From positions 1 through 36,532 of the forward strand of contig JAHCLN010000017.1 of the NCBI GenBank assembly GCA_026125215.1: a stretch of 36,532 nt of DNA. The letters run 5' to 3'. A model generated the notes under the pieces. It saw only the letters and a list, made by a program, of their open reading frames with translations, was not told where the DNA came from and ran no database searches. Shown piece after piece: positions 19,868 through 23,386 of the stretch. This DNA comes from Opitutaceae bacterium. Its GTDB lineage: Bacteria > Verrucomicrobiota > Verrucomicrobiia > Opitutales > Opitutaceae. A program made the position numbers and the translations under genes. The stretch's first letter is position 1. Each line of letters begins with the position of its first letter.

Positions 19868-20296
19868 ATGACTCGCGCACTTCTAATCGTCGTTCTCGTT
19901 GGGTTGTTCAGCGGCTGCCAGGCGCCGCTACCAGAAATCAATTACCGTGGCTCGCTCGATGGGAGCGTTGCCGATGTTGTAGCAGCGGGTGAAGCTTTCG
20001 TCAGCGCATTCAGCCAAGAGAGCGGCTTCAGGGTAGACAGCCGTATGCCAAGCAGCGGAGCGTCAAAAGAAGTTGATCGTGTGGATTACCACTTGCGCAC
20101 TGATTCGACGAAGCGGGTTTGGATTTATGTGACCGCATACAAGAAAGAAAGAATGATTGCCGTCACCATTGGTGGGGATTTCTCGTCGGCTGCCGCCATC
20201 GATGCAGCGAAAGTATCCGAGAAAATTTTTGCGCGGCTATTCCCGGGATCGACTTATTCTCCGTTTCAGAGATATCAGGGACTTCTTGGACCATGA
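19868..20296 (+). CDS. Small cassette-borne lipoprotein, function unknown
   Basis: A 142-residue protein with a lipoprotein signal: MTRALLIVVLVGLFSGC, lipobox FSGC with Cys17, followed by QAPLPEINYRGS. The mature part has an alpha/beta pattern (VADVVAAGEAFVSAFSQESGFRVDSRM, KRVWIYVTAYKKERMIAVTIGGDF, AAKVSEKIFARLFPG). It should be anchored to a membrane after lipidation. Codon use is less GC-biased than in the neighbouring genes, which fits a gene acquired in a cassette. No family is recognised. Confidence 0.72.
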   Translation: MTRALLIVVLVGLFSGCQAPLPEINYRGSLDGSVADVVAAGEAFVSAFSQESGFRVDSRMPSSGASKEVDRVDYHLRTDSTKRVWIYVTAYKKERMIAVTIGGDFSSAAAIDAAKVSEKIFARLFPGSTYSPFQRYQGLLGP

Positions 20297-20304
20297 AAAA
20301 GAAG

Positions 20305-20366
20305 GGCCAACCAGTCGGCACAGACAACTCCGTGGCTGCGCCCCGTCGTGTCTGACCTCAAACGTT
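20305..20366 (+). other. attC site of cassette 1, 3' core separated by the IS
   Basis: The R'' core is GGCCAAC (20305-20311). The 3' half ends TGACCTCAAACGTT at 20353-20366, very like the end of known attC sites (for example aadA cassettes end in ACTCAAGCGTTAG). CAGAC / GTCTG pairing is possible between the L'' and L' regions. The R' core is interrupted after GTT; its missing AGGC is found at 21969-21972 on the far side of the IS, so the unbroken site would end GTTAGGC and be about 66 bases long. Confidence 0.6.
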
Positions 20367-20723
20367 GATCTAGCTGCGTTTGATCAAGAGGAAAAACGAA
20401 GGACCTGTCCGAGGCGGTGAGGCGACGGTTTGATGGCAGGGTAATGCTACCGTGGCGGCAGAGGACAGGGACCGGGTTGTCTGATAAACGCGTGCGTTGA
20501 TGCGTATCGCGGCTGAACCGTGATCGTGCTGATCTTCGTGGATAGGTGCCAACGGCACCCCCAGCTTTTCATTGGTGCGTCGTGCCCGCACTCCCTAGGC
20601 TCGGACCTGACGTGACGCCATCGTCGCGCTGTCCCGAACGTCATCGTGCATGGGCCGGCCACCCAGTCCCTGACTTCTGCCGCCGTGCGGCGGCTATTTA
20701 AAAGAACCTCTTCAGCCCACGAC
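20367..20723 (-). ncRNA. Candidate guide (seek/bridge) RNA region, 3' of the transposase
   Basis: This long non-coding stretch inside the IS contains several perfect hairpins: GGTGCC/GGCACC with an AAC loop (20545-20559), TGACGT/ACGTCA (20608-20613, 20638-20643) enclosing GACG/CGTC, and GCCGCCG/CGGCGGC (20679-20694). IS1111-type elements encode their guide RNA downstream of the transposase, so this is the expected place. The exact ends and guide loops cannot be set by eye. Confidence 0.4.
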
Positions 20724-21833
20724 TCACGTCGTCTTTGGCACCTGCCGGAGCATGGCCCAGACAAAGCCGGTCATCTCCCGGGCCAAGGCCACGCTGACCT
20801 TCGCCTTCATCACCCCGCGCTGCAGCAGGTGCCAGCCGCGCTTGTGCAAGCGGGTCTGCACCTGCCAGGACAGCTCCTTGTAGCGGTCCGGTTGGTCGCG
20901 CTGGCGTTCGGTCAGTTGCGTCGAGACCTTCGGCGGCAACAGCGCGTGCTGCACCACCTCGATCATCATCCAGCGCGCGTGCGCGTTGCCCGACTTGGTG
21001 ATCCCGCCGAGCCGGCGGGTCTCACCACTGCTGGCCTCCCGGGGCACCAGACCGAGGAAGCCCATCAGGTGCCGCGGATGCCGGAACCGGTGGATGTCGC
21101 CGATCTCCGCCACCAGCACCGTCGCGGCCGTCAGCTTGATGCCTCGAAAGCACATCAGGGCCGCCACGGCCGGATACATCCGCCACGAGAGCACCTGCAC
21201 GGCGATCAGCTCGTCGAGCCGGGTGATCCGGCCCTCCGCCTGGTCCACCGCCAGCAGATACTCTTCCAGCACCGACTTGAGCGCGGTCACCGGCAATTCC
21301 AGTTCCCGCAGGTAACGGCGGTGCGCTTCGCTCCAGTTGGCCTTGCCGGTGTAGTGGTAACCCTGCCGCAGGAGGAACGACTTGAGCCGCTGCCGCGCCC
21401 GCGTCAGGTCGTGCACCGCATCGCTGCGGGCGCGGGTCAGGTCCCGGATCGCCTCGTCCGCGGCGTCCGGGATGTAGATCGCGGTCAGCTCCCCGGCCCG
21501 GTGCAGCCGCGCCAGTTGCTCCGCGTCCCGCCGGTCCGTCTTTTGCCGCAGGCCCTTTTCGGCCGGCAGCTTCGAGGGCGCCACCACGATGCAGTCGATC
21601 TTCAGCGCCGTCAGCCGCCGGTGGATCACAAACCCGGTCGGCCCGGCTTCATAGACCACGCGCAACTCCCCGGCTTCGCCCCGGATCTTGCGCAGCGCCT
21701 TCTCCAGCGCCCGCAGGTCCGAGCTGATCTGCCCGTAGAGGCGCACCTCGCCCTGGCGGCTGCCCTCGGCCACCGCGATCGTGATCGTATCTTTATGGAC
21801 ATCCAGGCCCACATATCTTTGCTTCGGCTTCAT
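20724..21833 (-). CDS. IS110-family transposase (DEDD)
   Basis: A 369-residue transposase. The N-terminal RuvC-like DEDD domain shows D in YVGLDVHKDTITIAVAEG, E in VVYEAGPTGF and the DxxD pair in QKTDRRDAEQLARL. The C-terminal Transposase_20 domain shows MCFRGIKLTAATVLVAEIGDIHRF, LGLVPREASSGETRRLGGITKSGNAHARW with its conserved Ser. These recombinases insert circular element DNA using an RNA guide. The start at 21833 (MKPKQRYVGLDVHKDT) matches family N-termini; the frame is open further upstream only through the structured leader. It appears intact. Confidence 0.93.
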   Translation of the reverse strand: MKPKQRYVGLDVHKDTITIAVAEGSRQGEVRLYGQISSDLRALEKALRKIRGEAGELRVVYEAGPTGFVIHRRLTALKIDCIVVAPSKLPAEKGLRQKTDRRDAEQLARLHRAGELTAIYIPDAADEAIRDLTRARSDAVHDLTRARQRLKSFLLRQGYHYTGKANWSEAHRRYLRELELPVTALKSVLEEYLLAVDQAEGRITRLDELIAVQVLSWRMYPAVAALMCFRGIKLTAATVLVAEIGDIHRFRHPRHLMGFLGLVPREASSGETRRLGGITKSGNAHARWMMIEVVQHALLPPKVSTQLTERQRDQPDRYKELSWQVQTRLHKRGWHLLQRGVMKAKVSVALAREMTGFVWAMLRQVPKTT

Positions 21834-21928
21834 GTGCTTGTCCTTGGTTTTGGTTGTTTCGGTTACACGCCACACCACTGCGGATAGGCTCTCCTCGAGA
21901 GTAACCCGCGTCCCCCAAGGACAAGCAC
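21834..21928 (-). promoter_or_regulatory. Structured leader hairpin directly before the transposase start
   Basis: A perfect 14-base inverted repeat GTGCTTGTCCTTGG: arms 21834-21847 and 21915-21928, the inner arm touching the start codon. Inside are GGTTAC/GTAACC (21861-21866, 21901-21906) and CTCTC/GAGAG (21889-21893, 21897-21901). A further GCTGC/GCAGC hairpin lies at 21943-21958. It could limit transposase translation or, if the element behaves like the IS110 group, be the body of the guide RNA. Confidence 0.55.
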
Positions 21929-21981
21929 CCCTCTTTCGCTCTGCTGCTTCATCGCAGCTATAATGCCTAGGCAAAAGCGGC

Positions 21982-22329
21982 ATGCGCATTTTCTACCACG
22001 GTGCTTATCAAAAGTCCGACGTCCCATCAGCGGCGCCGATCGAGTCCAGCGAGACCGAAGCCAAGAGTATTTTCGCACGTCTATCCGGCGAAGGCAGCTT
22101 TCTCGGCATATTGCTCCGCGCGGACCACACGTTGCAGCTCTACCGAAAGTCGGACGGGACTCTGCATGCCGAAGTCCTCAACGAACCGAAGCGCACCATT
22201 CGCTATTGCACCATCAACGTTCCGCTCGCGGAATTGCTCATCGAGGCCGCATTCCGCGGGGAGAGTCTCGAGCAGAAGATCGCGTTCGCGAGAGTCACTT
22301 GGAATGACGACCATCTCCAATCGGCCTAA
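21982..22329 (+). CDS. Cassette-borne protein of unknown function (cassette 2)
   Basis: A 115-residue protein without signal or membrane segments. Strand-like runs alternate (GSFLGILLRADHTLQLYRKSDGTLHAEVLNEPKRTIRYCTINVPL), ending in a helix (AELLIEAAFRGESLEQKIAFARVTW). It starts 9 bases after the cassette core (T)TAGGC, and its stop codon TAA lies inside the attC R'' core GCCTAAC, the usual compact form of integron cassettes. A perfect TATAAT at 21959-21964 in the end of the IS may drive it. No family is recognised. Confidence 0.65.
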   Translation: MRIFYHGAYQKSDVPSAAPIESSETEAKSIFARLSGEGSFLGILLRADHTLQLYRKSDGTLHAEVLNEPKRTIRYCTINVPLAELLIEAAFRGESLEQKIAFARVTWNDDHLQSA

Positions 22330-22390
22330 CAAGGCGCCAGAGCCAACGACGCTACGTGTCACGCCTCGTGCTTGCGCACGAGTCGCGCCC
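22324..22390 (+). other. Truncated attC site of cassette 2
   Basis: R'' GCCTAAC (22324-22330) is the exact reverse complement of GTTAGGC, the core at the start of the same cassette (reconstructed across the IS). The variable hairpin CTCGTGC-TTGC-GCACGAG is intact at about 22365-22382, but the expected L' and R' halves do not follow. The sequence instead changes to a 15-base unit CAAAGCCGACGGGGT repeated twice (22391-22420) leading into the MITE-like element. Confidence 0.55.
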
Positions 22391-22413
22391 CAAAGCCGAC
22401 GGGGTCAAAGCCG

Positions 22414-22603
22414 ACGGGGTCAGGCCGTAAATTGTAAATTAACGTCGTCGAGGCTACCAAGTGCTCATCACGGATAGCACATGAGGTCGCTCTCAATTGA
22501 ACCACCTTATTTCGAATGAATTAGGCTTGGAACCTTGATCGACCGACCACGCTTCCGCTCCTAAAGTCCACTCCTTAATTTACAATTTACGGCCTGACCC
22601 CGT
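22414..22603. mobile_element. MITE-like element with 29-bp perfect terminal inverted repeats
   Basis: The first 29 bases (22414-22442, beginning ACGGGGTCAGGCCGTAAA) are repeated exactly in inverted orientation at 22575-22603. The 132-base interior has no coding frame and is clearly more AT-rich than the surroundings. It is a small non-autonomous element; the mobilising transposase is not identifiable from this window. It sits between a truncated attC and a gene fragment, suggesting it took part in the rearrangement. Confidence 0.75.
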
Positions 22604-22762: not shown

Positions 22763-23083
22763 TTAGGCCGCGGTTTGCTGCCCGCGCTCAGCCAATTTTG
22801 CTGCAGGCCGGATTTTGGCCGTAAGCCGTTTCCGATCCTTGGCCAAGGCCCGGAAGTCACACTCCACTTGCAGCCCGTGCCAGAACTCAGGCGACTGGGA
22901 GAAGAAGGCCCCAAAACGGATGGACATGGCCGGCGTGATGGCCCGCTTGCCCAGCACGATCTCGTTGATGGCACGAGGGGACACGCCGACGGCGCGGGCC
23001 ATGGCATTCTGGGAGATGCCCAGCGGCTGAAGGTATTCCTCCAGAAGAATCTCACCGGGTGTGATAGGCAGGTTCACAGCCAT
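22763..23083 (-). CDS. higA: HigA-type antitoxin (XRE helix-turn-helix)
   Basis: A 106-residue antitoxin. The N-terminus [30 protein letters not shown] is the classic HigA/VapI pattern, with the helix-turn-helix at residues 22-46 ([25 protein letters not shown]) and the following [20 protein letters not shown] segment. HigA neutralises HigB and represses its own operon. It lies 24 bases downstream of higB on the same strand (toxin first, as is normal for higBA). A palindrome covers its start codon. The stop abuts the phytanoyl-CoA-dioxygenase fragment. Confidence 0.9.
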
Positions 23084-23107: not shown

Positions 23108-23386
23108 TCAATGATAATCCACGATGGCCACCTTCCCCGGCCCCGCGTCGGTCCAACGAAAGATGATGCGCCATTGGTCGTTGATGCGGATGGAGTGAAA
23201 CCCGGCGTATTTGCCCGCCAGCGCTTCCAACCGGTTGCCGGGCGGCACGGCCAGATCGCTCAAGCGTCCGGCACGGTTGAGCTGATAGAGCTTGCGCAAA
23301 GCCACGCGGGCGATCGCGGAGAACCGACGACTGCTCTCCTCCAGGAAGAGTTCCTCGGTGTCGGCATCGGCGAACGACTGAATCAT
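23108..23386 (-). CDS. higB: HigB-type toxin (RelE/ParE superfamily)
   Basis: A 92-residue toxin. [17 protein letters not shown] opens it, and the core [47 protein letters not shown] is typical of HigB/'killer'-type RelE-fold proteins, including the [10 protein letters not shown] strand with its conserved basic residues. HigB cleaves mRNA at the ribosome. It is the first gene of the higBA pair. The 182 bases upstream (23387-23568) contain no gene and should hold the promoter. Confidence 0.9.

What the first reader, a model, noticed from the sequence alone, without database searches (positions are those of the whole stretch)
21834..21968. 14-bp perfect stem sealing the transposase start
The 5' end of the IS folds into a nested structure: a 14-pair stem whose inner arm ends at the ATG, inner stems GGTTAC/GTAACC and CTCTC/GAGAG, and a terminal GCTGC/GCAGC hairpin. 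It could hold the start codon closed in read-through transcripts, or be a second guide-RNA candidate as in the IS110 group. Structure at both ends would be unusual.
Basis: partly seen in the sequence, partly recalled or inferred. Interest (0 to 1): 0.6.

Follow-up and report, generated by a model that had tools for sequence, protein, structure and literature searches.

The report
Conserved leader RNA on transposase mRNA
The long stem in front of this jumping gene is part of a folded RNA kept by matched mutations in related elements from very different bacteria, and it most likely hides the ribosome's landing site so that little transposase is made.

Summary
The 14-bp stem is real: arms 21834-21847 and 21915-21928, on the minus-strand transposase mRNA. 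It does not enclose the ATG. It ends exactly at it, and its 3' arm holds the Shine-Dalgarno-like AAGGA. It closes a ~95-nt leader with a conserved core (GNGGGTTR-hairpin-AGAGCCNCA or variants) and, in the window's group, a third helix. In 26 distinct relatives, 21 of 28 pairs show changes on both sides (73 cells; shuffles 22; slid registers at most 13). Stem and core recur in IS110/IS1111-type relatives from Acidobacteriota, Armatimonadota, alpha-, beta- and gammaproteobacteria (including ISSso6), Bacillota and Actinomycetota; no Rfam family matched. Most likely it is a cis-acting leader that holds the ribosome-binding site closed, as shown experimentally for ISPpu9, though homology to that leader was not tested. 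The predicted circle-junction promoter lies upstream of the 5' arm, so the element's own mRNA carries the stem, not only read-through RNA. The guide RNA candidate lies at the other end (3' non-coding region, attC-core-like sequence), so a second guide is unlikely. What opens the leader, and what its conserved core binds, is unknown; nothing was tested at the bench.

The parts
20366..21970 (-). whole insertion sequence (about 1604 bp), IS110 family, IS1111 type; ends read from repeated copies in a relative and from target flanks
20724..21833 (-). transposase gene, 369 aa (DEDD_Tnp_IS110 + Transposase_20)
21915..21928 (-). leader helix P1, 5' arm GTGCTTGTCCTTGG
21834..21847 (-). leader helix P1, 3' arm CCAAGGACAAGCAC, ends at the base before the ATG
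21841..21845 (-). Shine-Dalgarno-like AAGGA inside the P1 3' arm
   Evidence: sequence; coordinates; predicted occluded
21904..21909 (-). leader helix P2, 5' strand GCGGGT (start of conserved core)
21880..21885 (-). leader helix P2, 3' strand ATCCGC (end of conserved core)
21897..21901 (-). leader helix P3, 5' strand CTCTC
21889..21893 (-). leader helix P3, 3' strand GAGAG
21872..21877 (-). leader helix P4, 5' strand (weaker; 77-83% of cells paired)
21851..21857 (-). leader helix P4, 3' strand
21943..21958 (-). hairpin GCTGC/GCAGC near the left end, not constant in relatives
21953..21960 (-). left subterminal inverted repeat TAGCTGCG
20371..20378 (-). right subterminal inverted repeat CGCAGCTA
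21960..21965 (-). predicted -10 CATTAT of the junction promoter
   Evidence: read by eye; inferred
20382..20387 (-). predicted -35 TTGATC of the junction promoter (17-bp spacer when the ends are joined)
   Evidence: read by eye; inferred
20454..20684 (-). candidate guide (seek/bridge) RNA region in the 3' non-coding region, closed by a 24-nt 88% repeat; holds GACGTTCGGG, GAGCCTAGGG and GAAGATCAGCACG

Best explanation
The stem is the closing helix of a conserved, structured leader of the transposase mRNA of an IS1111-type element. Shown by comparison: the structure is kept as RNA on the sense strand, its closing helix ends at or within a few bases of the start codon, and helices and core are kept in relatives from many bacterial groups. 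Inferred: in mRNA made from the promoter formed when the element's ends join in the circle, the leader folds and the 3' arm, with its ribosome-binding sequence, is held closed, so translation is low by default. Something that acts on the conserved core (GNGGGTTR / AGAGCCNCA), most simply an element-encoded partner, or an antisense RNA as in ISPpu9, opens or tightens it. The guide RNA is separate and lies downstream of the gene.
For: Covariation: 16-row alignment, 13 of 28 pairs changed on both sides, 33 cells against 11.3 in shuffles; 26 distinct rows, 21 of 28 pairs, 73 cells against 22.1, covariation score 0.300 against 0.125, no shuffle of 500 as high, slid registers 10-13 cells. The stem ends exactly at the base before the ATG in 22 of 22 distinct leaders. 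With one search rule for all, a leader's own 3' arm scores 27.9 on average against 16.7 for arms of other groups; 18 of 574 foreign arms score as high as the own one (counted from the rows). The arms differ wholly between groups, e.g. GTGCTTGTCC, GGTGTGGTTG, GGCTGACCTCC, GGCCCGTCCC, GCTGGCC, CTGGGGCC. P2 changes as a pair: GCGG/CCGC, GTGG/CCAC, GAGG/CCTC. G-U pairs are used, and where the antisense strand matches at all it scores 17-23 bits against 76-96 for most sense matches: RNA, not DNA. Predicted openness of the 14 nt before the start codon is 0.17 with the leader, 0.54 without the 5' arm and 0.42 with shuffled leaders, lower than both in 28 of 28. Experimental precedent: in ISPpu9, weakening the 5'-UTR fold raised translation 26-fold (PMC8450116, section 18 read).
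Against: No expression, probing or reporter data. Alignment A3 was fitted to the model, which favours it; A2 was not, but its structure was chosen on it. Two inner P1 pairs fail in 9 and 7 of 26 rows, and the outer P4 pair in 15 of 25. The ATG itself is mostly unpaired (0.63 mean). The diverged leader L018 has no clear Shine-Dalgarno sequence in its arm, though the arm is still paired. 8 of 20 plasmid relatives lack the core. In a fully closed leader nothing explains how enough transposase is ever made.
Confidence: 0.8

Rival explanations
1. The leader is a second guide (bridge/seek) RNA, or the true one, processed from the 5' non-coding region as in the IS110 group.
For: Size (~95 nt) and a closed, conserved fold resemble the 70-100-nt seekRNAs of PMC11187229; IS110-group elements carry the guide on this side.
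Against: Leader and joined insertion-site flanks share only 4-6 nt in 14 copies, while the 3' region carries GACGTTAGG/GACGTTCGG, like the attC core, and sequences like both element ends. The 3' region looks conserved in the 14 relatives printed apart from L061, which diverges early (by eye). The leader's most constant part is its core, not a variable loop. The closing helix is tied to the start codon.
Confidence: 0.07
2. The stem protects only against read-through transcription from outside, as recalled for IS10 and IS50, while the element's own mRNA starts inside and is open.
For: Shape of the arrangement; predicted opening of the binding site when the 5' arm is missing.
Against: The end sequences place the predicted junction promoter upstream of the 5' arm in the window and relatives (read by eye). 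The consensus scan found no promoter in 21500-22100, so none inside the leader by that rule. A conserved internal core would not be needed.
Confidence: 0.1
3. The inverted repeat acts as DNA, e.g. as a transposase binding site or cruciform.
For: IS1111 elements do use inverted repeats near their ends.
Against: Those repeats are separate (TAGCTGCG, 21953-21960 and 20371-20378). The leader uses G-U pairs and scores far better on the mRNA strand.
Confidence: 0.03

Closest known systems
ISPpu9 transposase 5'-UTR of Pseudomonas putida (PMC8450116; abstract, passages and section 18 read)
   Same: An IS transposase mRNA with a long 5'-UTR whose fold buries the ribosome-binding site; a further RNA from downstream of the gene.
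   Different: There an antisense RNA, Asr9, opens the fold; no promoter-like site was found on either strand of 21500-22100 here. No conserved motif or covariation was described in what I read.
IS1111-type elements that insert in integron attC sites, such as ISKpn4 and ISPst6 (PMC11187229; parts 1 and 2 of the text read)
   Same: Subterminal repeats, GL-P----SG motif, longer non-coding region downstream with guide features, insertion at one end of attC, circle-junction promoter (predicted here).
   Different: The transposase is longer (369 aa against 330-350) and a structured 5' leader is present; whether ISKpn4 or ISPst6 have one was not tested.
IS110-group bridge RNA, e.g. IS621 (PMC11208160; passages read)
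   Same: Structured non-coding RNA between the left end and the recombinase gene.
   Different: No target match was found in the leader; the guide features lie at the other end.
ISSso6 and ISSfr2 (names from plasmid annotation)
   Same: Carry the same leader core and a closing stem at the start codon.
   Different: Arm sequences differ entirely; ISSfr2 has a helix enclosing P2 where the window has P4.

Membership tests
IS110 family | DEDD transposase with PF01548 and PF02371 | tested here: met
   both above the curated cut-off
IS1111 group | subterminal inverted repeats (7-17 bp per PMC11208160; usually 11-13 per PMC11187229) | tested here: met
   8 bp in the window, 8-14 bp in most relatives; in 5 of 21 rows (L012, L028, L016, L023, L056) the script picked another repeat. 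Short by the stricter figure
IS1111 group | longer non-coding region downstream of tnp | tested here: met
   about 356 nt downstream to the end repeat against 127 nt upstream
IS1111 group | GL-P----S(T)G motif in the C-terminal domain | tested here: met
   GLVPREASSG in P0001; motif from PMC11187229
IS1111 group | transposase of 330-350 aa | tested here: not met
   369 aa; a described range rather than a strict definition
attC-targeting IS1111 elements | insertion at one end of attC, fixed orientation | tested here: met
   14 copies have GCC or TCC just left and ACGT just right of the element, mostly followed by a GRTSAG-like stretch (by eye; L010's right flank differs); two integron integrases over cut-off in the genome. 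attC identity is by eye
RBS-occluding IS leader (ISPpu9 kind) | 5'-UTR fold that covers the ribosome-binding site | tested here: met
   predicted only:
RBS-occluding IS leader (ISPpu9 kind) | weakening the fold raises translation | not testable with these tools
   needs a reporter
RBS-occluding IS leader (ISPpu9 kind) | antisense RNA across the leader | tested here: inconclusive
   no sigma-70-like site on either strand in 21500-22100; other promoter types not covered
IS110-group bridge RNA | upstream RNA matching target and donor | tested here: not met
   4-6-nt target matches in the leader; donor match not scored for the leader
known Rfam RNA family | match to a covariance model | tested here: not met
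   0 matches at E<=1 in 20200-22600 and at E<=0.5 in eight relatives' loci

The most novel reading that the evidence does not exclude
The leader is a sensor for the element's own guide-RNA/transposase complex: its phylum-spanning core (GNGGGTTR / AGAGCCNCA) binds the transposase or its guide RNA, so that translation is coupled to the supply of guide, a riboswitch-like feedback in an RNA-guided transposon. Short leader-to-3'-region complements of 8-9 nt occur in several elements, but not in the window, and foreign regions did as well in 43% of comparisons, so RNA pairing is the weaker version and protein binding the stronger one.
Probability: 0.25. Interest if true: 0.78.

Novelty: new variant of a known kind. 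Interest (0 to 1): 0.58.

Why it matters
IS110/IS1111 elements are RNA-guided recombinases of interest as editing tools, yet how they limit their own transposase is hardly studied. A leader motif shared from the window's group to ISSso6 of Shigella and E. coli plasmids, with no match in Rfam, would be a common control layer for one large branch of them. It can be tested with simple reporters, and its conserved core points to a partner that travels with the element.

Tried and rejected
Leader as guide RNA: compared with joined insertion-site flanks; only 4-6-nt matches. Leader core paired with the element's own 3' region: mean rank 7.25 of 20 against 10.5 expected with whole cores, but for the 9-nt element the mean chance p is 0.25 and foreign regions do as well in 43% of comparisons; the window has only 6 nt. 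Not accepted. GGTTAC/GTAACC as the inner stem: not kept. Antisense promoter: none found. Finding the motif by a sequence pattern alone: 30 viral contigs, of which 7 are ISSso6-like copies with the stem at the start codon and 23 have no such context; the pattern is not specific. The own/cross pairing figure (97% against 48%) is biased, because only own stems were optimised; one search is the fair version. Of the 33 leaders I named there, 30 entered; L017 and L060 failed the automatic search and L037 gave no start. Those 33 had been chosen for having the core, so they say nothing about prevalence; prevalence figures are 12 of 20 plasmid relatives (labels also) and 7 of 387 genomes of the phylum with a model hit. 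In the tree, 5 of 42 named rows were dropped for lack of a long enough protein. The genome-contig scan gave only 5 relatives. Literature: 8 searches showed no description of this motif; many subscription papers are not held, including the two attC-IS papers I know by name (Tetu and Holmes, recalled; Post and Hall, seen as a reference).

Full report
What is there. The transposase gene is on the minus strand (20724-21833) and belongs to the IS110 family. The two 14-nt arms at 21834-21847 and 21915-21928 are perfectly complementary. On the mRNA strand the order is: 5' arm, a 67-nt inside, 3' arm CCAAGGACAAGCAC, then ATG. The 3' arm contains AAGGA, placed like a Shine-Dalgarno sequence. In 3000 simulated leaders of the same make-up no stem was as good.

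The element. Five copies in one relative and the flanks of 14 copies place its ends near 21970 and 20366. Subterminal repeats are TAGCTGCG / CGCAGCTA. The 3' non-coding region is long and strongly conserved. In the window's group it carries GACGTT(A/C)GGG, like the attC core, and GAGCCTAG and AGATCAGCACG, like the two element ends. The transposase has GLVPREASSG, which fits the IS1111 motif given in PMC11187229. The copies sit in attC-like sequence; the genome has two integron integrases above cut-off. The element is thus IS1111-type, inserted like the attC-targeting members, with its guide RNA most likely downstream.

Conservation. Relatives came from 200 genomes of the family (13 with a hit, the window's own among them), 387 of the phylum (5 with a DNA hit; 7 with a model hit; own genome included), genome contigs (5 loci) and plasmids (731 records at E<=1e-30, and 798 at E<=1e-20, of which I fetched 20). 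In 22 of 22 distinct leaders from the first sets the closing stem ends at the base before the ATG. A structure with P1, P2, P3 and P4 was written on a 16-row MAFFT alignment: 89.4% of cells pair and 33 cells changed on both sides against 11.3 in shuffles; 'further pair types' was not above shuffles there (20 against 20.3). On the model alignment of 28 matches (26 distinct), 21 of 28 pairs have changes on both sides, 73 cells against 22.1, and further pair types are 37 against 27.9. Slid registers give 10-13 cells.

Spread. In the 20 plasmid loci, 12 have the core and 8 do not (tree). In most of the 12 the stem abuts the start codon or overlaps it by two bases; in L061 and L062 it is two bases away; in the Bacillota locus L067 it is five bases away. 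L060 has the core, but the script did not return the stem; by eye its stem leads to a TTG start. On the transposase tree of 37 rows the label needs two changes (shuffled mean 7.4): the absence is one clade of seven plus L058. Two long branches, L067 and L071, are placed unsurely. A control with one search rule for all gives 27.9 for own arms against 16.7 for arms of other groups; own beats every foreign arm in 21 of 30 rows. L007 and L008 were counted as different groups though their arms are alike, which works against the result.

Sense strand and RNA. G-U pairs occur in P1, P2 and P4. Of the loci where both strands match the model, the sense strand scores 76-91 bits and the antisense 17-23. 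This speaks for RNA and for the transposase strand.

How it likely works. Folding predicts the 14 nt before the start codon to be 0.17 open with the leader, 0.54 without the 5' arm and 0.42 with shuffled leaders; with the leader it is lowest in 28 of 28. The start codon itself is mostly open (0.63). When the ends are joined, TTGATC (right end) and CATTAT (left end) stand 17 bp apart; relatives have TTGACA-like and CATAAT-like sequences in the same places (read by eye). Such circle-junction promoters are reported for these families (PMC11187229). The predicted start lies upstream of the 5' arm, so the whole leader is in the element's own mRNA. Hence I read it as a default brake on translation, not merely a guard against read-through. 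In ISPpu9 the same kind of brake was shown: weakening the fold raised translation 26-fold, and an antisense RNA is proposed to open it. I found no sign of an antisense promoter here.

What is not explained. The most constant part, GNGGGTTR on one side and AGAGCCNCA, CCTATCCNCA or CCGAGCCNCA on the other, is not needed for a plain brake. It suggests a partner. Pairing with the element's own 3' region was tested and is not general. Binding of transposase or a host factor could not be tested.

Known or new. No Rfam family matched the window's element (E<=1) or eight relatives' loci (E<=0.5). Eight literature searches gave the ISPpu9 paper as the nearest report and none of this motif. I call it a new variant of a known kind: a ribosome-site-occluding transposase leader with a conserved, widely shared core.

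Noticed in passing
L034, L038, L049 (two), L053 (genome G049): Five copies of left end + leader + roughly the first 50 codons of tnp, followed by a shared ~140-nt stretch, without the rest of the gene: an internally reduced, multi-copy derivative.
   Followed up: partly
L002 (G000:C13), about 1501-1721: A left-end fragment with the leader and about 24 codons whose right side joins attC-like sequence just at G|TT, the integron crossover point (by eye).
   Followed up: partly
window 22414-22442 and 22575-22603: Perfect 29-bp inverted repeat (ACGGGGTCAGGCCGTAAATTGTAAATTAA) 132 bp apart, beside an attC-like stretch and a toxin-antitoxin-like pair.
   Followed up: no
window 22763-23083 and 23108-23386, minus strand: Two small adjacent ORFs that look like a HigA/HigB-type pair (by eye, from memory).
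   Followed up: no
window 22330-22400 plus: Looks like an attC site after a small ORF (21982-22329), so the window seems to hold integron cassettes; two integron integrases lie on other contigs.
   Followed up: partly
3' non-coding regions of L007 and L054-L072: A strongly conserved segment like GGTAACCAACCCGCGNATATCAG downstream of tnp across phyla, apparently the core of the guide RNA of this branch.
   Followed up: partly
L065 (ISEc45), L055, L059, L063, L070: Relatives without the core still seem to have a simpler hairpin near the start codon, so covering the binding site may be common in the IS110 family (by eye).
   Followed up: partly
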